A DNA stretch of 38,987 bases from Flavobacterium sp. (GTDB taxonomy: Bacteria; Bacteroidota; Bacteroidia; Flavobacteriales; Flavobacteriaceae). Each line of letters starts with the position of its first letter. The stretch's first letter is position 1. The position numbers were made by a program, and so were the translations under genes. Below, piece by piece: positions 17,005 through 25,292 of this stretch. The notes under the pieces are model-generated. The model searched no databases. It saw only the letters and a program-made list of their open reading frames with translations, and had not been told where the DNA came from. The stretch covers positions 1 to 38,987 of the forward strand of contig JASLHL010000262.1 of assembly GCA_030152225.1 (NCBI GenBank), in the 5' to 3' direction.

Positions 17005-19491
17005 TTAAAAGTCTTTTTTAAAGCCAAACATAAAACCATCTTTGAAGAATGCACTTCCTTGATAGGCGCGTACATAATCTACGCGGAACCCTTTCATGCT
17101 ACCAATACCGATATTAGATAGTCCTACGGTAAACTCTTGATATACCTTTGCTTCTGATGTAGCTGCATTGTGATAGCCCGCCACTACATTCCACCCTGTC
17201 CATTTCAGCAAAGGCAAGCGATTCATAATAAATCCTTTGAAATTATACTCTAGGTGAGTTTCTAGATAGGATTTGTTGGTACTCAAACTATAATAAGGCA
17301 ATAAGTTAAAAGAACTCATGCGGTCATTTTCAATATTCAAATGGGTTTCATTTCCTGAAAAATGCTTGTGATCGACATAAGCAATATCTTTTCCATTAAA
17401 AAAGTGTCCCCCTTTAACCGCATAGGAAAACTCGCCTTTGTTACCCAGTGTAATATCTTGTTTAATACCCACTGTAACTAAATCGTAGTTATAGCGATTT
17501 TCGCTACCTCCAAATGCTTTTTCGTATCCAACATTGATTTTTGGATATTTTGCATTGCGTATATACCAACGCTCCTCTGGATAAGAAATATAAGTCATAC
17601 CCAAATTGATATTCGCTCCTACTTTGAATTTGTATAAGTGATGTAATTCAATTGGCGCGCTTAAATCGTTTAAAGGCGCTGTAGGATCATTTGACGTATA
17701 GGCTCTACTTCCGGTATAAAAAGAACCATTGGCGTTGTTAAACAGCGGTTTTCGCTGCTCGTATCCTACTTCAGCTCCTAAGCTGATCGCCTCATCGACA
17801 AATTTGCCCTTATACCCTACATAAGCCTCTTCGTTGTTATAGTATTTGGCAAAGTTCTTTCTAAAGAGCAAAGAAAACAAACTATTGAAAACTTCACTGA
17901 TGTTATCCTTGTGAAACTGTTCTATTTTTGTTCCTCCTCTTACGTATACCGAAGATTTATTTAAGTCATTGAATTGATGACTTAAAGTACCGTAGGCACG
18001 AAAACGCTCAGAGGCAAATCCATAGTTAACATCCGCAGCAGCACGTGTATATGATTTTTTATCTTTTTCATACCAAGTCGCTGATAACCCCGTTCCCATA
18101 TAAAAACCTTGAACGGTATTAAATCCAATTTTGTCTAATTCGATTAAACCATCATAATTCAACGTAAAGTGCTCCTTTTTACTTCTGTATCGGTATCCTG
18201 TAATCGGAGCAAGAACATCAAAGCGATTGCGTACCATTCGAATACTATCTCGGTAAGCTGGCGACTCAATTCGCTCGCGGATACTATCTTTAAATTGGTA
18301 GTCTTTGCTTTCTTCAACAGTTAGGGGATACAAACGTTGGTTTGTCCAGAAGTCGTCGTCTTTTTTATTGGCGTCTTTGGCAAAGGATAAAACTTCTTTT
18401 CCAAAATCGGCTCTTGTAAAATTGGGTGTAAAATTGTAGTTGTTGAATACGCTCAAAAAGACACCTTGTCCTTTGAATCCAAATAAGTTAATCAACATAT
18501 CCAACGTTTGCGAACGCTTAACCCACGTTTGATTGGCTTCGTTGTAAAAGAAATTTTGACTGATAGCAATAGACTCGAGGAAAGGCTGTTGTAAGCTCAC
18601 GCCAGTCACAGTAAGATCCACGCCATATAATGCTGCTGTATCATCGTCAATATAAATATCGCCAAAGAAAACGGGCTGATTTTTTACTTTTGGTGTTACT
18701 TTGATTTTATTGATTACTACGCCATTGTCTTTGAAAGTAGCCTCTAAGTTAAATCGATAAAAAGAAAATGCCTGATTGGCCAAAGGAGAAATCATTTGGA
18801 TATCAAAATCGGCCATTCGAAATTGATTGTCGTAAAAATCATACATGGATTCATCGGCAGTATTAAAACTATAGCCGCTGTTGTTTCCACTAATCTTAGA
18901 GGCAACAATATGTTCTTTTAGTTGATTGGGTTTTTGATATTTTAATTCGGATACTGTTTCTGACAAGTACAGTATTCCCTGTCCTAAAGAGTCTAATCCG
19001 CTGGCTTTATCTTCACCAACATAGACTTTATCTTGTGCAAATTTGGGTATTTTCAAACTCTTGATCATTCCTTTGGAATAAAAATCGGCGGAGAAAGAGG
19101 CGACTCCTTGGGTATTTTTTGTCTTGTTGGCAATGGCTCTGCGAATAATTTCATCCGCAGGGTTCTTCCCCACCTTAATGACAATATCGTCCAATTGGAA
19201 CTCTTCTTCTTGAAGCACCACATCTAGAGTTAAGGGTTTTCCTTCGTATTGGACGTTTTTTCGTTCTGTTTTATAACCTAAAAACTGAAAAGCAAAAGTA
19301 TAATTGCCCGTGGACTTTGGTTTAATCTCATATTCTCCTTTGTCGTTACTGATAACCCCTTGCTGGGTTTGCTCCAAGATAATGGTCGCATAGCTAATGG
19401 GTTTTCCCGCTTGATCAACAAGCGTTCCGCTGACCTGTGCAAAAGAAAACAAAGACAGCGAACACACAAATAAGGTGATTAATTTTTTCAT
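17005..19491 (-). CDS. DUF5686 outer-membrane protein with carboxypeptidase-like regulatory domain
   Basis: The 828-residue protein has a signal peptide (MKKLITLFVCSLSLFSFAQ). A CarboxypepD_reg-like beta-sandwich follows (about 20-105: VSGTLVDQAGKPISYATIILE... GEYEIKP... FAFQFLGYKT), as found at the front of TonB-dependent and related outer-membrane proteins. The long remainder matches the DUF5686 plan, with Tyr/Phe-rich strands, and ends FMFGFKKDF with terminal Phe. I see no TonB-dependent plug motif. Family members are abundant in Flavobacteriia and their function is unknown; a surface barrel role is inferred. It is a single gene with a shared terminator downstream. Confidence 0.88.
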   Translation of the reverse strand: MKKLITLFVCSLSLFSFAQVSGTLVDQAGKPISYATIILEQTQQGVISNDKGEYEIKPKSTGNYTFAFQFLGYKTERKNVQYEGKPLTLDVVLQEEEFQLDDIVIKVGKNPADEIIRRAIANKTKNTQGVASFSADFYSKGMIKSLKIPKFAQDKVYVGEDKASGLDSLGQGILYLSETVSELKYQKPNQLKEHIVASKISGNNSGYSFNTADESMYDFYDNQFRMADFDIQMISPLANQAFSFYRFNLEATFKDNGVVINKIKVTPKVKNQPVFFGDIYIDDDTAALYGVDLTVTGVSLQQPFLESIAISQNFFYNEANQTWVKRSQTLDMLINLFGFKGQGVFLSVFNNYNFTPNFTRADFGKEVLSFAKDANKKDDDFWTNQRLYPLTVEESKDYQFKDSIRERIESPAYRDSIRMVRNRFDVLAPITGYRYRSKKEHFTLNYDGLIELDKIGFNTVQGFYMGTGLSATWYEKDKKSYTRAAADVNYGFASERFRAYGTLSHQFNDLNKSSVYVRGGTKIEQFHKDNISEVFNSLFSLLFRKNFAKYYNNEEAYVGYKGKFVDEAISLGAEVGYEQRKPLFNNANGSFYTGSRAYTSNDPTAPLNDLSAPIELHHLYKFKVGANINLGMTYISYPEERWYIRNAKYPKINVGYEKAFGGSENRYNYDLVTVGIKQDITLGNKGEFSYAVKGGHFFNGKDIAYVDHKHFSGNETHLNIENDRMSSFNLLPYYSLSTNKSYLETHLEYNFKGFIMNRLPLLKWTGWNVVAGYHNAATSEAKVYQEFTVGLSNIGIGSMKGFRVDYVRAYQGSAFFKDGFMFGFKKDF

Positions 19492-19616
19492 GTGATGTAT
19501 GTTGGTTGATAAACGATAAGACGCTGCACTTTCATTTATGTTACATCACCTGCACTTTCTTTTGTGTTTATTCCCTAATTTACCTCTTTAAAAAAAGGGA
19601 GCATTTGCTATTTAGA

Positions 19617-20324
19617 TTAGGAAATAACTCGGTATTTTTCAACTAATTGCACCAGTTCTGTCTGCAATTTTGGTTTGAGAATAAAGATAGCAATATAGCT
19701 CCACAAGCTCATTAAAAGTACCAGAAGGGCGATAAGCCCAATCACCCAGGCATTGACCTCAAAAGTATGTGTCATATTGGGCAGTTGAATAAAAATGGTA
19801 CTAACCGATAAAAAAGCTCCTCCAGAATAGCTTTGAATTGCAACGGTCTCCAATAGGAATTTTCGCTGAGTCAAACGCTGTTGTTGCTTTAGTTTTCGCT
19901 GCCATAGGGTACCTATAATCATATAAATAGTTGTCAACCCAAAAAGCAAGCAAAAGAGAAACCAAACTCCATTTTCTTGATAAGTAACCCCTATAGTAAA
20001 TAGGATCAAGTACAGCGCTATTGAAAAAATGATCTTTGGCAACGTAAAGAATGACATCAATTGTTTCAGCATCATTTTGATATAAACTTTAGTCAATCGA
20101 TTGACCTTGACCTCTACCACATCGCTAAACCCAAAGATGCCAAACTTTTTAAATGCAATTTGCAGAGCCTGTTCAAAGGATACTTGTTCATCCTGCACCC
20201 ATTGCGCTTCAATATCGTGAGCTAAGTGATCGACCAATTCCAACTCCACATCGTAAAACTCAACATAGTGTTGCCGTACAAAACGGTGTAATTGTTCAAT
20301 TGCGGTTGGACTAAGTATCTTCAT
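19617..20324 (-). CDS. PadR-linked membrane protein, paralogue 6 (HAAS-like N-terminal domain)
   Basis: The 235-residue protein is last of six tandem paralogues in the padR operon. The N-terminal helical domain (about residues 1-75) holds VELELVDHLAHDIEAQW and a downstream FEQALQIAFKKFGIFGF block. About four membrane helices follow (for example IIFSIALYLILFTIGV, WFLFCLLFGLTTIYMII, AWVIGLIALLVLLMSLWSYIAIFIL). The first domain is almost identical to that of the preceding gene (58 of 62 residues from EQLH to DVVE), while the membrane part is not. It starts 3 bp after the preceding gene. No enzyme motif is visible; I infer a membrane-bound partner of PadR. The HAAS assignment is by pattern only. 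Confidence 0.7.
   Translation of the reverse strand: MKILSPTAIEQLHRFVRQHYVEFYDVELELVDHLAHDIEAQWVQDEQVSFEQALQIAFKKFGIFGFSDVVEVKVNRLTKVYIKMMLKQLMSFFTLPKIIFSIALYLILFTIGVTYQENGVWFLFCLLFGLTTIYMIIGTLWQRKLKQQQRLTQRKFLLETVAIQSYSGGAFLSVSTIFIQLPNMTHTFEVNAWVIGLIALLVLLMSLWSYIAIFILKPKLQTELVQLVEKYRVIS
20112..20301 (-). repeat. Direct repeat, copy 2: N-terminal coding block of paralogue 6
   Basis: This 190-bp segment matches 20820-21009 with about 14 differences by my hand alignment (about 93% identity), with no gaps. Identity falls off sharply on the 3' (membrane-domain) side. It is a recent intragenic duplication or gene conversion. Confidence 0.85.
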
Positions 20325-20327
20325 CGT

Positions 20328-21035
20328 TTATAAGGTTACTATTTTTGTTTTCTGTTCGTTCAAATCACGTTCAACCTTTGGAACTACCACAGCTTTTAAT
20401 ACATAAACGTACAATACAGTTACCGTAAGTATAAAAACAGAGAGCAGTGAAAGCGCTGTATTTTCAGTATTAAATCCCCGTGGTAGAATCCATCTAAACT
20501 CATAAAGCGTAATGAAATAATAGGGCCATACTTCTAAGTTGTACAGTACGGATTGCAACAGCCATTTTTTTTCTTTTGCCTTTTCTCTGACTTTTTTCTC
20601 CCGATGTAATTTTACCATTTGCACGACGATAAATAAAAATCCAAGGCCTAAAAATAGGTCTTCAACGAATCGTATTCCATATTGAGTAAGATACGTTTTT
20701 GCGAGGTAGAGTACTAAAAACAACGCCACTGACACAACAATTTTAGGTAAAGTAAAAAATTCCTTTAATAATCGAAAGCTCTCTTTATAGTAAGCGCTAT
20801 TTAATTTGTTAATCTTTTGTTCCACCACATCGCTGAACCCAAAAACACCAAACTTTTTAAATGCAATTTGCAAAGCCTGTTCAAAAGATACTTGTACATC
20901 CTTCGCCCATTGCGCTTCTATATCGTGAGCTAAATGATCGACCAATTCCAACTCCACATCGTAAAACTCAACATAGTGTTGACGTACAAAACGGTGTAAT
21001 TGTTCAATTTCTTGAAGTGTAACTTTTCTCTCCAT
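20328..21035 (-). CDS. PadR-linked membrane protein, paralogue 5 (HAAS-like N-terminal domain)
   Basis: The 235-residue protein is a close sister of the next gene in its first third: residues 10-71 differ at only 4 of 62 sites. Both keep FFTLPKI where the membrane part begins. After that the sequences diverge: here the helices are VVSVALFLVLYLAKTYL, FLGLGFLFIVVQMV and LSLLSVFILTVTVLYVYVL, with a highly charged loop HREKKVREKAKEKKW facing one side. It lies 12 bp after paralogue 4. The pair lacks the Trp and GIPxF motifs of paralogues 1-4, so it forms its own subgroup. Confidence 0.7.
   Translation of the reverse strand: MERKVTLQEIEQLHRFVRQHYVEFYDVELELVDHLAHDIEAQWAKDVQVSFEQALQIAFKKFGVFGFSDVVEQKINKLNSAYYKESFRLLKEFFTLPKIVVSVALFLVLYLAKTYLTQYGIRFVEDLFLGLGFLFIVVQMVKLHREKKVREKAKEKKWLLQSVLYNLEVWPYYFITLYEFRWILPRGFNTENTALSLLSVFILTVTVLYVYVLKAVVVPKVERDLNEQKTKIVTL
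20820..21009 (-). repeat. Direct repeat, copy 1: N-terminal coding block of paralogue 5
   Basis: Partner of the repeat at 20112-20301. The stretch from about 20938 to 21009 has a single mismatch after the first base change, so even third codon positions are conserved. Confidence 0.85.
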
Positions 21036-21047
21036 ATCTTCTACATT

Positions 21048-21722
21048 TTATAGCATTTGCCATTTAATTTGGTATACTTTCTCTTTGTGATAATCCATTC
21101 TCCACTGAATCAAATAGAACAACGTACTAATGCCTATCAATAAATACATATAAAAATACCAATCTCCAGAAGGCATGAGCCTAAATCGACTCACTCCTCC
21201 TATGATAATAATAAAACTCTGTATCATACCGAGTCTCTTGAATTCAACGCGCAGAAAAGTCCCTGTTGCCGTTTGTAATGGCATATTTTCTACTAAGCTG
21301 AAATTTCTTAGAAACATTATTACACAACTAATAAACAATAGCACTAAAATTCCCAATCCCCATACATAGTCCTCGCCTAGGGCTACTATGCCATGGAACA
21401 AACCCGCAAACAACAAGGTGGTCAGTACACCAAACAGACACGCTCGTCCACCTCGTTTAAAGCGTTCTTTTTTCCATTGTTGTGCAACAAAATACGGAAT
21501 CCCTCTAAAAAATCCCTTGGCAGGTTTCAATAACACATCCCATTTTGCAATCACAAGAACAAAGGCTTCTTCGTAATTTTTTCCTGTATGAAGTTCTGTT
21601 TCAATATCCGAAGCAATATGATCGACTACTTCTGCTCGAAGATCGATATAATACAAGCGATAGTGTTCCAGTAGAAACTGGTCTATATGTTGGAGTTGGT
21701 GTGGTGTAAGATTAATCATCAT
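21048..21722 (-). CDS. PadR-linked membrane protein, paralogue 4 (HAAS-like N-terminal domain)
   Basis: The 224-residue protein has the shared N-terminal domain (residues 1-80): LRAEVVDHIASDIETELHTGKNYEEAF, then a KWDVLLKP block and FRGIPYFVAQQW, the GIPxF motif shared with paralogues 1-3. Four hydrophobic segments follow (LFGVLTTLLFAGLFHGIVAL, VWGLGILVLLFISCVIMFL, MIQSFIIIIGGVSRF, YFYMYLLIGISTLFYLI). It begins 1 bp after paralogue 3 ends and so is translationally coupled. The function is unknown; the context points to signalling with PadR. Confidence 0.7.
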   Translation of the reverse strand: MMINLTPHQLQHIDQFLLEHYRLYYIDLRAEVVDHIASDIETELHTGKNYEEAFVLVIAKWDVLLKPAKGFFRGIPYFVAQQWKKERFKRGGRACLFGVLTTLLFAGLFHGIVALGEDYVWGLGILVLLFISCVIMFLRNFSLVENMPLQTATGTFLRVEFKRLGMIQSFIIIIGGVSRFRLMPSGDWYFYMYLLIGISTLFYLIQWRMDYHKEKVYQIKWQML

Positions 21723-21723
21723 T

Positions 21724-22359
21724 TCACTTTTTTACTGTCCTAAATTGATAAAGACGATAAGATAAATAGGTATTCACGGCAAATAAAAAACAAGAAGTGT
21801 ATAGAATCGTTGGAGCCCGTTCTTCAAGAATAGTGGGTACATCCCACATCCAACCTAATAGGATCAGTAAAACAAGTAGTGCCATAACATTCAAATAGTT
21901 TAAATAATGTAGTTGTTTTTTATAATAATTGAGTGAAAAACTCTGTTGATGTTTCACTTGATGTAAACACTGTTGATTTATAAGCCACGAAAACAGCAAA
22001 AGACCCCAACTACTCGATGTTAAAATATAGTTTACTTCTCCTAGTAAGCTCAAGAAAAGTGAAAGACTAAGGATAATCCCCACATGAACCAACAGGTCAT
22101 TTTTTATCAGCCGACGTGCAATAAAACGCGGAATGTTTTGATAGCCATTAAACCGCGAGGGGTGTAAATGAGGGTGCCATTGATTGAAGACATTCATAAA
22201 AGCGATCTTATACGATTGTCCTTGATTGATTTGTTCTTCAATCGCACAAGCAATATGATCTAATACCTCACCTCGTACCTCTTCATCTACTTGCATAGCG
22301 TATTGATCAACTAAAAAATCTTCCACTTGTTGCAATTGGTCTGTCGTGAGTGTTTGCAT
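21724..22359 (-). CDS. PadR-linked membrane protein, paralogue 3 (HAAS-like N-terminal domain)
   Basis: This protein has 211 residues. The N-terminal domain contains VRGEVLDHIACAIEEQINQGQSYKIAF, FNQWHPHLHP and NIPRFIARRL, the last a variant of the GIPxF motif. Membrane segments follow: LLVHVGIILSLSLFLSLLG, WGLLLFSWLI, YLNVMALLVLLILLGWMW and ILYTSCFLFAVNTYLSY. It shares the HIACxIE core, including the Cys, with paralogues 1 and 2. It sits 15 bp after paralogue 2. Confidence 0.7.
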   Translation of the reverse strand: MQTLTTDQLQQVEDFLVDQYAMQVDEEVRGEVLDHIACAIEEQINQGQSYKIAFMNVFNQWHPHLHPSRFNGYQNIPRFIARRLIKNDLLVHVGIILSLSLFLSLLGEVNYILTSSSWGLLLFSWLINQQCLHQVKHQQSFSLNYYKKQLHYLNYLNVMALLVLLILLGWMWDVPTILEERAPTILYTSCFLFAVNTYLSYRLYQFRTVKK

Positions 22360-22374
22360 GCTTCCAGATTTAAA

Positions 22375-23016
22375 TTATATCGATTGCGTTTTCACCTTGC
22401 GATACTGTTGCATCACCTGACTAGCAAAAAACACATTCAAGATCAACAAGTGAACAGCTACTACAAATAGATGATAGGGAGTCAAAAGAACATCTTGTGC
22501 AATGTCCTTTCTTAGGTGGAACATTGCCACGGTTAATGAGATGATATTCACTAGCATCACACTGCCCAAGACATGCATATAGAACTTCATTTCATAACTC
22601 TTTTGCTTAAAGAAGCGCTTTTGTACCACCACAGAAATAAGGAACCCAAGTAGGATACAGCCAAAACTAACCCAAGGAGTAGGCGTGAACTCCATAACCT
22701 GCAAACTCTCAAGGAGCCAGCTCATCAAAAATAAAAGGAAAAAAACGAGGTAAAACACGGCATCTTTACGATACAGTTGCTTTACGATACACGTAGGAAT
22801 ACCCTGTTTTCCCAGCACAGGTTTCAATTCAAAATGCCATTTTCCCAGCACATGTTGTTTTGCTTGTGTATACTCAACCCCTTGCTCAAGATACTCCTCA
22901 ATTTCACAAGCGATATGGTCCACAACCTCATCGCGGAATGCTTGAAAATTCAGATCGTATTGTTGAATCAATCGGGTTTCTATTTCTAGTATTTGTTTGG
23001 TTGTCAGTTTCTTCAT
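22375..23016 (-). CDS. PadR-linked membrane protein, paralogue 2 (HAAS-like N-terminal domain)
   Basis: This protein has 213 residues. The N-terminal domain carries FRDEVVDHIACEIEEYLEQGVEYTQA, GKWHFELKP and QGIPTCIVKQL, then four membrane helices (VFYLVFFLLFLMSWLLE, WVSFGCILLGFLISVVV, VLGSVMLVNIISLTVAMF, YHLFVVAVHLLILNVFF). It is separated from paralogue 1 by 69 bp, the largest gap in the cluster. That gap holds a near-match to the -7 element (TATGTTTA at 23043-23036, ending 19 bp before the ATG), so a second, internal promoter is possible. Confidence 0.7.
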   Translation of the reverse strand: MKKLTTKQILEIETRLIQQYDLNFQAFRDEVVDHIACEIEEYLEQGVEYTQAKQHVLGKWHFELKPVLGKQGIPTCIVKQLYRKDAVFYLVFFLLFLMSWLLESLQVMEFTPTPWVSFGCILLGFLISVVVQKRFFKQKSYEMKFYMHVLGSVMLVNIISLTVAMFHLRKDIAQDVLLTPYHLFVVAVHLLILNVFFASQVMQQYRKVKTQSI

Positions 23017-23085
23017 TTTTTATAAACTACGAGATTAAACATAGTACAAAACATTGTTTTTTCCGTCTTTTCTTCTTGCTATGCG

Positions 23086-23739
23086 TTATTTCGCTAACTT
23101 AAATTTTTGATGTTTACAATATTTTCTAAATCGCAGGAGCAAAAAGGAGTTGAAAATAAAATAGTAAACCAATAAAAAACTAAAATTAGACATCTGCTCA
23201 TAGGTTCTCCAGATCATGTAAAAAACAACCACAAGAACAAAAGGGATTGCACTCTTAATCCAGGTACTCCTTGCTTTTCCTCTAAAAAAATCATAGCGAT
23301 AATCCTGTATATGCTTTGATTCTTTATGTATAATAAAAACACCACAGGTATGTAAAACAAACAAAGAACTCATCAAGATGATCTGATTCCATTGTAAATA
23401 CCAAGACGCCAGCAACAAGGGAATGGATAAAATCGCAGCGATCAGTAGCGATTGTAGCTCAACTTTTGTATACTCCTTATTGAATTGATTCAAAATAAAA
23501 TGCGGAATTCCTTTGAATACTCCTTTCTCATCAGCAATCAATCGAACATTCCACGTTCTAAAAACTAGGGTTGTTGCTTCTTCATAGGTTTCTCCCTGAT
23601 TCATTACTTCTTCAATCGCACAAGCGATGTGATCGAGAATCTCATATCGAATTTCATCCTGTTGCAACTCGTATTTTTGCAGTAATCGATCCTCAATGGA
23701 CTGTACTTGTTCTAGGGTTAATTTTTTCATTTGCTCCAT
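23086..23739 (-). CDS. PadR-linked membrane protein, paralogue 1 (HAAS-like N-terminal domain)
   Basis: The 217-residue protein is first after padR, 21 bp from its stop. The N-terminal domain has IRYEILDHIACAIEEVMNQ, then GETYEEATTLVFRTWNVRL and FKGIPHFILNQF. Membrane helices follow (LLIAAILSIPLLLASWYL, IILMSSLFVLHTCGVFII, IPFVLVVVFYMIW, SFLLVYYFIFNSFLLL). An in-frame ATG at 23730 (MKKLTLEQ) is an equally good start and matches the start of paralogue 2. The layout of a helical pair with an acidic/His core, a Gly turn and then a membrane anchor recalls DUF1700-like HAAS proteins that partner PadR regulators. That link is inferred, not demonstrated. Confidence 0.72.
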   Translation of the reverse strand: MEQMKKLTLEQVQSIEDRLLQKYELQQDEIRYEILDHIACAIEEVMNQGETYEEATTLVFRTWNVRLIADEKGVFKGIPHFILNQFNKEYTKVELQSLLIAAILSIPLLLASWYLQWNQIILMSSLFVLHTCGVFIIHKESKHIQDYRYDFFRGKARSTWIKSAIPFVLVVVFYMIWRTYEQMSNFSFLLVYYFIFNSFLLLRFRKYCKHQKFKLAK

Positions 23740-23760
23740 AATCTATTCGTTTATACAGTC

Positions 23761-24096
23761 TTAAGTCAATTTCAGGTTAACGATATTTTGCATGTTTCGA
23801 ATGAAATTTTCCAATTCCTCCATCTTATTATCTGTTTCCTTTACACCACTTTCGGTCAATTTATAGTACTTTCTTACTCGTCCATCTACGCGTTCCATGT
23901 CCACATCTAAAAAACCATCTGCCTCCAACTTGTGCAGAGCTGGGTAAAGTGCTCCTTCGGTCAGACTCATCTCCCCTGTGGTAATTTCCTTTACTTTTTG
24001 GGTAATTTCATAGCCGTACATGCGACCGTTTTCAGCCAATAACTTCATGATAATTGTATTCAAGCTACCTTTGTATAGTTGTTGTTGCTTTGCCAT
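23761..24096 (-). CDS. PadR family transcriptional regulator
   Basis: This 111-residue winged-helix regulator of the short PadR subfamily 2 has the signature YGYEITQKVKE (about residues 27-37), then LTEGALYPALHKLEADGFL, the recognition helix and wing, and GRVRKYYKLTESG. The short C-terminal helix is for dimerisation. It is the first gene of an operon with six membrane-protein paralogues. Its promoter region holds a perfect palindrome over the -33 position (24135-24157) and a matching half-site near the transcription start. This strongly suggests autorepression of the whole operon. The inducing signal is not known. Confidence 0.92.
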   Translation of the reverse strand: MAKQQQLYKGSLNTIIMKLLAENGRMYGYEITQKVKEITTGEMSLTEGALYPALHKLEADGFLDVDMERVDGRVRKYYKLTESGVKETDNKMEELENFIRNMQNIVNLKLT

Positions 24097-24107
24097 ATAT
24101 AAGATTC

Positions 24108-24116
24108 TTAGGTATA
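24108..24116 (+). promoter_or_regulatory. Isolated PadR half-site (candidate)
   Basis: TTAGGTATA repeats most of one arm (TTATAGGTATA) of the main palindrome and lies at the expected padR transcription start. It may be a secondary operator contact. Confidence 0.4.
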
Positions 24117-24124
24117 CAAATATA
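24117..24124 (-). promoter_or_regulatory. -7 promoter element of the padR operon
   Basis: TATATTTG is a full TAnnTTTG match ending 20 bp before the padR ATG at 24096. The -33 position falls inside the palindrome at 24135-24157. Confidence 0.7.
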
Positions 24125-24134
24125 GTATTTTTTT

Positions 24135-24157
24135 TATACCTATAACTTATAGGTATA
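24135..24157. promoter_or_regulatory. Perfect palindrome, candidate PadR operator
   Basis: Arms TATACCTATAA and TTATAGGTATA are exact reverse complements around a single C. The centre at 24146 is 26 bp upstream of the middle of the padR -7 element, so bound protein would cover the -33 box. The divergent ferredoxin reductase promoter (-7 at 24210) is about 60 bp away and might or might not be affected. Confidence 0.7.
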
Positions 24158-24239: not shown

Positions 24240-25292
24240 ATGTCAAGATTCAACAATTTAACGGTAAAAGAGATTCGCAGCGAAACTCCTCATGCGGTTT
24301 CAATCGCATTGGAAATTCCGGCTTCCTTACAACAAGAGTATACCTTTGTTGCTGGGCAATATCTCAACATTAGCTATGAACATAACGGCAAAGAGATAAG
24401 ACGAGCTTATTCGATCTGCTCGACCCCGCAAAGTGGAGAGATCCGCATTGTTGTAAAGAAAGTAGAACAAGGTATTTTTTCTACCTATGCTAATGATGTG
24501 TTGAAAGTTGGTGATCAATTGGCTGTAGAGGCTCCTGATGGACGATTTACTTTTAGTCCCAATCCAGAAGCATCAGCTAATTATGCAGCCTTTGCTGCAG
24601 GTAGTGGAATTACACCAGTTATGTCCATTTTACAAAGTGTTTTAACACAAGAACCCAACAGTAAATTTGTTCTGGTTTATGGGAATAAATCAAAAGAGGA
24701 GACCATCTTCCATGAGCAATTACACCAACTTCAGGAGCAATATCCTGAACAGCTTTATGTTCACTTTGTATATTCGAGAATGAGAGAAGGCGATTCTCTT
24801 TTTGGACGTATTGACAAAGCGGCCATCAATTTTGTAGTAAACAATAAACATCAAGATAAAACTTTTTCAACCTATTTCTTGTGTGGACCAGAAGAAATGA
24901 TTGACTTAGTAAGTGATACCCTTCAGTCAAAAGGGGTAGAAAAAGAGCAGATTCTCTTTGAGATCTTCACCCCTAATACAGATGGGAACACCCCAGTAGA
25001 AGCACAAGGAGGAAGTACGAAAGTAACAGTTGTTGTAGACGATGAAGAATCGACCTTTGAGATGCCAAAGAGTCAAGCGCTTTTAACTGGCGTCTTAGAT
25101 GCTGGTATTGATGCGCCTTATTCGTGTCAGGGAGGAATTTGTAGCTCTTGCATGTGCCGTATTACTAAGGGATCTGCAACTATGAAACGCAATAGTATAC
25201 TGACTGATGATGAAGTTGCTGAAGGATTAATTCTATCGTGTCAAGCGATTGTCACTTCAGATGAAATCCACATCAACTACGATGATATATAG
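24240..25292 (+). CDS. PaaE-type ferredoxin--NADP reductase with C-terminal 2Fe-2S domain
   Basis: The 350-residue flavoprotein has an FAD-binding FNR domain (about 1-105; RRAYSICSTP binds FAD), an NAD(P)-binding domain (about 108-235; AAGSGITPVMSI, FLCGPEEMI), and a plant-type 2Fe-2S ferredoxin domain (about 260-350). The cluster ligands are CQGGICSSCMC plus a distal SCQA cysteine. The layout is that of PaaE, the reductase of phenylacetyl-CoA epoxidase, and of related oxygenase reductases. No paaABCD genes lie in the window, so a general ferredoxin/oxygenase reductase role is safer than paaE. It is divergent from padR and ends at its own terminator. Confidence 0.88.
   Translation: MSRFNNLTVKEIRSETPHAVSIALEIPASLQQEYTFVAGQYLNISYEHNGKEIRRAYSICSTPQSGEIRIVVKKVEQGIFSTYANDVLKVGDQLAVEAPDGRFTFSPNPEASANYAAFAAGSGITPVMSILQSVLTQEPNSKFVLVYGNKSKEETIFHEQLHQLQEQYPEQLYVHFVYSRMREGDSLFGRIDKAAINFVVNNKHQDKTFSTYFLCGPEEMIDLVSDTLQSKGVEKEQILFEIFTPNTDGNTPVEAQGGSTKVTVVVDDEESTFEMPKSQALLTGVLDAGIDAPYSCQGGICSSCMCRITKGSATMKRNSILTDDEVAEGLILSCQAIVTSDEIHINYDDI

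What the first reader, a model, noticed from the sequence alone, without database searches (positions are those of the whole stretch)
19617..24157. PadR regulator with six tandem, diversified membrane-protein paralogues
Seen in sequence: one operon of padR plus six proteins of 211-235 residues. All have an N-terminal helical domain with the core [RE]xE[ILV][LV]DH[IL]Axx[IL]E, followed by about four membrane helices. The N-terminal domain is conserved and the membrane parts are very different. Known: PadR regulators are often encoded beside membrane proteins with DUF1700/HAAS-type helical signalling domains, usually one per regulator. Inference: the shared domain contacts a common partner (PadR or each other), while the varied membrane domains sense different envelope signals or form hetero-oligomers. 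A six-fold expansion under one regulator is unusual.
Basis: partly seen in the sequence, partly recalled or inferred. Interest (0 to 1): 0.85.

Follow-up and report, generated by a model that had tools for sequence, protein, structure and literature searches.

The report
PadR operon of six membrane paralogues
A bacterium of the Myroides kind carries what looks like a self-regulating operon in which one PadR-type repressor is followed by six related membrane proteins; in the last two, the shared N-terminal domain has been copied from gene to gene while the membrane parts stayed different and old, as one would expect of several membrane sensors or effectors that plug into one common partner.

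Summary
In detail: padR (23761-24096, minus) is followed by six co-oriented genes (211-235 aa) with a shared N-terminal helical domain and divergent membrane parts, gaps at most 69 nt. It resembles the published HAAS-PadR dyad. The N-domains match NCBIfam perm_prefix_1 weakly (below cut-off), not Pfam HAAS. Six copies are many but not unique: 93 padR loci, window included, carry 0-11. Found here: (1) A palindromic motif precedes padR in 75 of 93 loci (0.02 in shuffles; motif derived from these sequences); elsewhere in six related genomes such sites are at control level, so the regulon may be the operon itself. (2) Genes 5 and 6 share a 186-nt block (174 identical) while their membrane parts are 26% identical. 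The N-domain codon tree joins them (100/97); the membrane-part tree rejects that (AU p 9.5e-98): gene conversion. Four other loci show it at codon level, one with an N/C chimera. (3) padR plus three tandem perm_prefix_1 permeases in two other genomes show a similar contrast. Best reading: an autorepressed array of membrane sensor-effectors sharing a docking domain. PadR binding, signal and membrane function are inferred.

The parts
23761..24096 (-). padR, winged-helix transcriptional regulator (111 aa)
   Evidence: Pfam PF03551 E 2.9e-21; NCBIfam TIGR03433 padR_acidobact 70.5 bits, below its cut-off of 101.8
23086..23739 (-). gene 1: perm_prefix/HAAS-like N-domain plus four-helix membrane part, 217 aa
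   Evidence: perm_prefix_1 E 2.5e-4, below cut-off; AF2 model pLDDT 79.8; 4 hydrophobic segments
22375..23016 (-). gene 2: same architecture, 213 aa
21724..22359 (-). gene 3: same N-domain, 211 aa; no close membrane-part relative among the 226 proteins compared (best 27% identity, score 58)
21048..21722 (-). gene 4: same architecture, 224 aa
20328..21035 (-). gene 5: second N-domain type (FGxFGF), 235 aa
   Evidence: (AF2 pLDDT 83.0)
19617..20324 (-). gene 6: second N-domain type, 235 aa, last gene of the array
20824..21009 (-). converted tract in gene 5 (186 nt, 93.5% identical to gene 6)
   Evidence: 174 of 186 nt; 39% before it, 48% in the 60 nt after it; trees
20116..20301 (-). converted tract in gene 6 (partner of 20824-21009)
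24135..24157 (.). putative PadR operator O1, perfect palindrome TATACCTATAACTTATAGGTATA
   Evidence: motif upstream of padR in 75 of 93 loci
24095..24115 (.). putative second operator O2 (one mismatch to the motif), reaching into the padR start codon
   Evidence: sequence printed; copies at padR in relatives: exact in G085, one mismatch in G002 and G067
24117..24124 (-). putative Bacteroidota -7 promoter element TATATTTG (TAnnTTTG) between O1 and O2
   Evidence: TAnnTTTG within 70 nt upstream of padR in 74 of 93 loci, no shuffle control made; the consensus itself is recalled
24240..25292 (+). divergent FAD/NAD/2Fe-2S reductase; conserved neighbour, not shown to be part of the system
   Evidence: Pfam; homologue in 76 of 92 related loci, within 600 nt of padR and divergent in 74

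Best explanation
The locus is an autorepressed PadR/HAAS-like module. PadR binds two palindromic operators around the promoter of its own operon and keeps it low (sites seen by comparison; binding inferred). Each of the six products sits in the inner membrane with a cytoplasmic helical N-domain and about four membrane helices with short loops (predicted). A disturbance in or at the membrane changes the membrane part, and the N-domain then takes up or releases PadR, so the operon is induced (inferred from the published HAAS-PadR model). No excess of operators was seen elsewhere in six related genomes, so the induced membrane proteins are probably themselves the effectors: a closed loop that makes several different membrane proteins sharing one docking domain, to PadR, to each other or both. 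The array grows by tandem duplication (inferred); membrane parts diverge, and N-domains of some same-type copies, mostly neighbours, are made alike again by gene conversion (shown for genes 5/6 and a few other loci).
For: Operator: ATRCMTA-N7-TAKGYAT upstream of padR in 75 of 93 loci, mean 0.02 in 200 first-order Markov shuffles. Exact sites in 12 genomes: G001, G002, G067, G007 and G010 one each and G009 two, all at padR; G085 two at padR and one elsewhere (not examined); G005 one at padR and one in a coding gene; G032 one, in a coding gene; G003, G004, G006 none (padR places). With one mismatch, 10-17 sites against 8-24 for the reversed pattern in six genomes. All 41 family members found at E<=1e-4 in 8 genomes lie in the padR array. 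Domain link: perm_prefix_1 in 32 of 46 relatives, profile matches for all six, padR plus three tandem perm_prefix_1 permeases in two other genomes. Conversion: N-domain codon tree joins genes 5/6 at 100/97 and rejects gene 6 + L034 gene 4 (AU p 0.039); membrane-part tree rejects joining 5/6 (AU p 9.5e-98). Nearest neighbours of 204 proteins: N-domain in the same locus but membrane part elsewhere in 20 (13 loci), the reverse in 3. Codon identity of N-domains is higher between paralogues than to the membrane-part orthologue (uncorrected p<0.05) in 6 triplets of 5 loci: window, L003, L005, L022, L040. L040 gene 3 has the membrane part of gene 2 (99% aa) and the N-domain of gene 4 (94%).
Against: No experiment shows PadR binding to DNA or to the N-domain. 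The operator motif was derived from the same sequences it was counted in, and the loci are related, so 0.02 overstates the contrast; 18 of 93 lack it, and exact-site counts per genome (0-3) are near the reversed-pattern control (0-2), so only their place at padR is telling. Pfam HAAS and HAAS_TM are not matched; perm_prefix_1 matches of gene 1 (E 2.5e-4) and genes 2-4 (E 0.09-0.12) are below cut-off and the gene 5/6 type hits it in 2 of 51. The two N-domain types are only 24-34% identical within the window, so one docking face for all six is not assured. Conversion may be a by-product, as it can act only where copies are still alike. Support is uneven: 17 of 332 triplets show the discordance, 11 of them without a significant codon-level difference; on equal thresholds the mirrored count is not lower (67 of 425), though 66 of those 67 rest on membrane-part identities of 18-33%. 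A pooled codon test gave p 0.06 and 0.07.
Confidence: 0.55

Rival explanations
1. The six proteins form one hetero-oligomeric membrane assembly; the N-domains bind each other, and PadR senses a small molecule by itself (as LmrR-type PadR proteins do, recalled). The N-domain is then an assembly interface, not a link to PadR.
For: Close spacing of different paralogues with one shared domain; FGxFGF-type protein last in 58 of 63 arrays with two or more genes and in 17 of 145 other positions; conversion would also keep an assembly interface matched.
Against: A related domain sits on quite different membrane bodies beside padR (PMC11237479 passages; large permeases), which points to PadR rather than to co-assembly. 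Copy number 0-11 does not suggest a fixed complex.
Confidence: 0.22
2. The array is an accessory of an ABC exporter: in many relatives padR and the array precede a DUF5687 permease and an ATPase, and the window lineage has lost or moved that pair.
For: Permease plus ATPase downstream on the same strand in 52 of 92 loci, permease alone in one more.
Against: The pair may have its own promoter: TGTAAC-N(17-19)-CTWA in 30 of 53 upstream stretches against 0.13 in shuffles (motif derived from these stretches); TAnnTTTG in none of 42 gaps. Arrays persist without it and are not smaller (median 3 copies in 35 loci against 2 in 53, p 0.02, lineage not controlled). Of 14 genomes chosen mostly for lacking the pair, 12 hold a DUF5687 homologue away from padR, one (G093) right beside padR on the other strand, one none.
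Confidence: 0.1
3. Neutral accretion: tandem duplicates of a tolerated membrane-protein gene, with conversion as a mere consequence of leftover similarity in the N-domain.
For: Copy number varies widely; fragments exist (L056, L085); conversion is seen mostly between adjacent same-type copies.
Against: All six window genes are open and full-length; membrane-part orthologues persist in other species for five of the six genes (best 54-84% identity); two old membrane-part clades are kept side by side.
Confidence: 0.13

Closest known systems
HAAS-PadR dyad (PMC11237479; passages seen; also one passage of PMC12419801)
   Same: Stand-alone PadR beside a multi-helix domain fused to a multi-helix membrane part; proposed release of PadR on a membrane signal; 4TM bodies are mentioned there.
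   Different: No match to Pfam HAAS/HAAS_TM; up to 11 tandem copies under one PadR; N-domain converted between copies. The passages found for 'tandem' and 'paralog' in that paper concern PspA/Snf7, not HAAS; its supplement was not seen.
perm_prefix_1 (NF038403) permeases, ADOP-type by recall, with padR_acidobact-like (TIGR03433) regulators
   Same: Related N-domain; padR directly upstream; three tandem copies with the first 70 residues more alike (58-84% aa) than the rest (34-38%) in two loci.
   Different: Large permeases (866-890 aa) instead of about 220-aa four-helix proteins; window matches to both models are below their cut-offs.
Listeria LltR (lmo0599) operon with DUF1700 protein Lmo0600 (PMC6624303, passages)
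   Same: Autorepressing PadR; the membrane protein with a helical signalling domain in its own operon causes the phenotype of the repressor mutant (cold-growth defect).
   Different: One DUF1700 protein plus a DUF4097 protein, not six paralogues; another phylum.

Membership tests
PadR family | PadR winged-helix profile above the curated cut-off | tested here: met
   PF03551 75.7 bits, cut-off 27
HAAS-PadR dyad | Profile match to Pfam HAAS (PF22564) or HAAS_TM (PF08006) | tested here: not met
   Not among hits of the six nor of 46 and 51 relatives at E<=0.05. In 5 genomes PF22564 is over cut-off in two, away from the array; the G003 one is a PspC protein, the G004 one was not read. PF08006: none over cut-off
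HAAS-PadR dyad | Three-helix core, third helix kinked at a GxP motif | tested here: inconclusive
   Three to four N-terminal helices predicted. A proline is invariant in all 46 rows of the gene 1-4 type (P79) but lies just before the fourth helix in the model; the motif is absent in genes 5/6
HAAS-PadR dyad | Gene neighbourhood with a stand-alone PadR | tested here: met
   41 of 41 family members found in 8 genomes lie in the padR array
perm_prefix_1 (NF038403) | Score over the curated cut-off (30 bits) | tested here: not met
   Gene 1 20.8 bits, E 2.5e-4; genes 2-4 12.2-12.6 bits; genes 5-6 not listed
perm_prefix_1 (NF038403) | Homology by profile-profile comparison | tested here: inconclusive
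   Six comparisons against 22 permeases, P 2.2e-4 to 3.4e-4, conserved motif in register over 53 (genes 1-4) or 32 columns (genes 5-6), but hhalign probability 38-45% and the queries share alignments
PadR autoregulation | Binding of PadR to operators at its own promoter | not testable with these tools
   Conserved palindromes only

The most novel reading that the evidence does not exclude
PadR arrays are concerted-evolution repertoires: one repressor, many membrane sensor-effectors. Duplication adds receptors, membrane parts diverge, and gene conversion keeps the PadR-docking domains of copies matched to each other and to the PadR of that strain, perhaps even between close strains. This would be a bacterial one-regulator/many-receptor system, found in parallel in tandem perm_prefix_1 permease arrays.
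Probability: 0.3. Interest if true: 0.75.

Novelty: new variant of a known kind. Interest (0 to 1): 0.55.

Why it matters
The HAAS-PadR dyad is proposed as an alternative to two-component signalling, but in the passages seen its wiring is predicted, not measured. This locus offers natural experiments: different membrane parts behind near-identical docking domains (genes 5/6), one regulator, few operator sites, and a natural chimera in a relative (L040). That makes two questions directly testable: does the domain contact PadR, and are the membrane proteins sensors, effectors or both? The discordant trees also show that likeness of a shared domain in a bacterial array can come from conversion and not from constraint alone.

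Tried and rejected

Sampling limits: of the matches I fetched 30 of 42 and 30 of 43 (left out: those already held, weak ones, some on short contigs or simply not taken). The 33 loci were chosen by array similarity, so copy numbers lean upward. L030 has no padR and was dropped from counts. No exact duplicates among the 93; four pairs of last genes are over 90% alike. Counts can miss members: L022, L027 and L031 have gaps of 706-1370 nt inside the array, and one of six zero-count loci (L056) holds a fragment.
Full report
Observation. The window holds padR and six further minus-strand genes in one close series, 24096 down to 19617. PadR is certain. The six have no Pfam or NCBIfam match over a curated cut-off. 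They share an N-terminal domain and differ in the membrane part. The host is Myroides-like: many of the closest proteins that carry a name are from Myroides, for example gene 5 against a protein of Myroides sp. C15-4 (95% in the N-domain, 98% in the membrane part). No whole genome was held for the window.

Family. The N-domains match perm_prefix_1 (gene 1 E 2.5e-4, below cut-off; 32 of 46 proteins of the gene 1-4 type at E<=0.05, best 3.2e-6; 2 of 51 of the gene 5/6 type, best 0.011). Profile comparison with 22 perm_prefix_1 permeases of the same phylum aligns all six with the conserved motif in register, P 2.2e-4 to 3.4e-4 but probability only 38-45%, over 53 columns (genes 1-4) or 32 (genes 5-6). 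Pfam HAAS and HAAS_TM are not matched, and comparison with HAAS-bearing PspC proteins was weak. The published HAAS-PadR account names FtsX-like MacB permeases among HAAS fusions (passage); I take these to be the perm_prefix_1 type, which is inference. Two AlphaFold models show three to four N-terminal helices followed by about four long ones; fold searches were uninformative.

How common. Of 93 loci with padR, the window included, copy numbers are 0 in 6, 1 in 24, 2 in 24, 3 in 15, 4 in 14, 5 in 6, 6 in 3 and 11 in 1. The 11-copy array is in Myroides odoratimimus (L005). This padR has a single match in 9 of 10 genomes at E<=1e-10; at E<=1e-25, 5 of 37 and 4 of 39 genomes with a match have two, and 64 of 101 and 110 of 149 have none. 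All 41 family members found at E<=1e-4 in 8 genomes lie in the array. In arrays of two or more genes the last gene has the FGxFGF type in 58 of 63; 17 of 145 other positions have it.

Regulation. A perfect 23-nt palindrome (24135-24157) lies upstream of padR, with a second, imperfect copy (24095-24115) and a TAnnTTTG element between them. The motif ATRCMTA-N7-TAKGYAT, drawn from these upstream stretches, precedes padR in 75 of 93 loci; shuffles give 0.02 on average. In 12 genomes exact sites number 0-3 per genome, near the reversed-pattern control (0-2), but 8 of the 12 have one at padR. One-mismatch counts in six genomes are at control level. So the likely regulon is the operon, perhaps with the divergent reductase gene that shares the intergenic region: a homologue is present in 76 of 92 loci, within 600 nt and divergent in 74.

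Concerted evolution. Genes 5 and 6 share 174 of 186 nt over codons 9-70, falling to 39% before and 48% just after. Codons for identical residues are the same in 42 of 47 cases in the N-domain but 13 of 37 in the membrane part. Against membrane-part orthologues the N-domain value is 27 of 41 and 26 of 41 (Fisher p 0.008 and 0.003, uncorrected). In trees of 22 chosen proteins of this type, the N-domain codon tree joins genes 5 and 6 (100/97) and also within-locus pairs of L003, L005, L008, L034 and L040 (bootstrap 85-99, SH-aLRT 65-96); the membrane-part tree puts genes 5 and 6 in different clades and rejects joining them (p 9.5e-98). Over 204 proteins in multi-gene loci, 20 in 13 loci have their nearest N-domain in the same locus but their nearest membrane part elsewhere; 3 show the reverse (not independent). 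Triplets: 17 of 332, in 12 of 44 loci, have an N-domain closer to a paralogue than to the membrane-part orthologue; 6 of the 17, in 5 loci, also at codon level with p<0.05. The mirrored triplet count on equal thresholds is higher (67 of 425); 66 of these 67 have paralogue membrane-part identities of 18-33%, which I read as noise among unrelated membrane parts, and one has 44%. So the triplet count alone proves no asymmetry; trees, codons and the chimera carry the claim. L040 gene 3 is that chimera: membrane part 99% identical to gene 2, N-domain 94% to gene 4. At strain level the C15-4 proteins matching genes 5 and 6 are 98% and 97% identical to the window's in the membrane part but 95% and 90% in the N-domain, and 97% to each other there; a third relative of gene 6 (P0003) goes the other way (98% N, 91% membrane). 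This is a hint of continuing conversion, no more.

A parallel. In two other genomes of the phylum padR is followed by three tandem perm_prefix_1 permeases whose first 70 residues are 58-84% identical and the rest 34-38%, with more identical codons in the first part (0.52-0.75 against 0.34-0.44). A third padR locus (L147) has two such permeases and was not compared.

Mechanism. Shown: gene order, motif conservation, site scarcity elsewhere, tree discordance. Inferred: PadR binding, N-domain docking, membrane sensing, effector role. The short loops suggest a signal within or near the membrane rather than a large soluble ligand. In Listeria the comparable membrane protein causes the phenotype of its derepressed operon (passages of PMC6624303), which fits the closed loop here.

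Verdict. A real locus and a new variant of a known kind. The six-fold expansion is not the news; conversion of a shared domain beneath old, different membrane parts, and a probable closed regulatory loop, are.

Noticed in passing
window 24240-25292 (+) and related loci: A FAD/NAD/2Fe-2S reductase gene is divergent from padR within 600 nt in 74 of 92 related loci, a deep linkage for which I know no reason.
   Followed up: partly
downstream of the array in 52 of 92 loci, e.g. L086: A DUF5687 ABC permease and an ATPase follow the array; in 42 loci the gap to the permease is short (median 57 nt), and 30 of 53 permease upstream stretches hold an ECF-like motif TGTAAC-N(17-19)-CTWA.
   Followed up: partly
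window 19492-19616, minus strand: The same TGTAAC-N19-CTTA motif lies upstream of the DUF5686 gene 17005-19491 that follows the array in the window (sequence, spacing counted by eye).
   Followed up: no
L094, L096 (relatives G003, G001): A PspC-domain protein at another locus carries the Pfam-type HAAS domain, over cut-off in G003 and below it in G001.
   Followed up: partly
L040 genes 2-4 (genome G093): Natural chimera of array genes: gene 3 combines the membrane part of gene 2 with the N-domain of gene 4. In the same genome a DUF5687 gene lies right beside padR on the other strand.
   Followed up: partly
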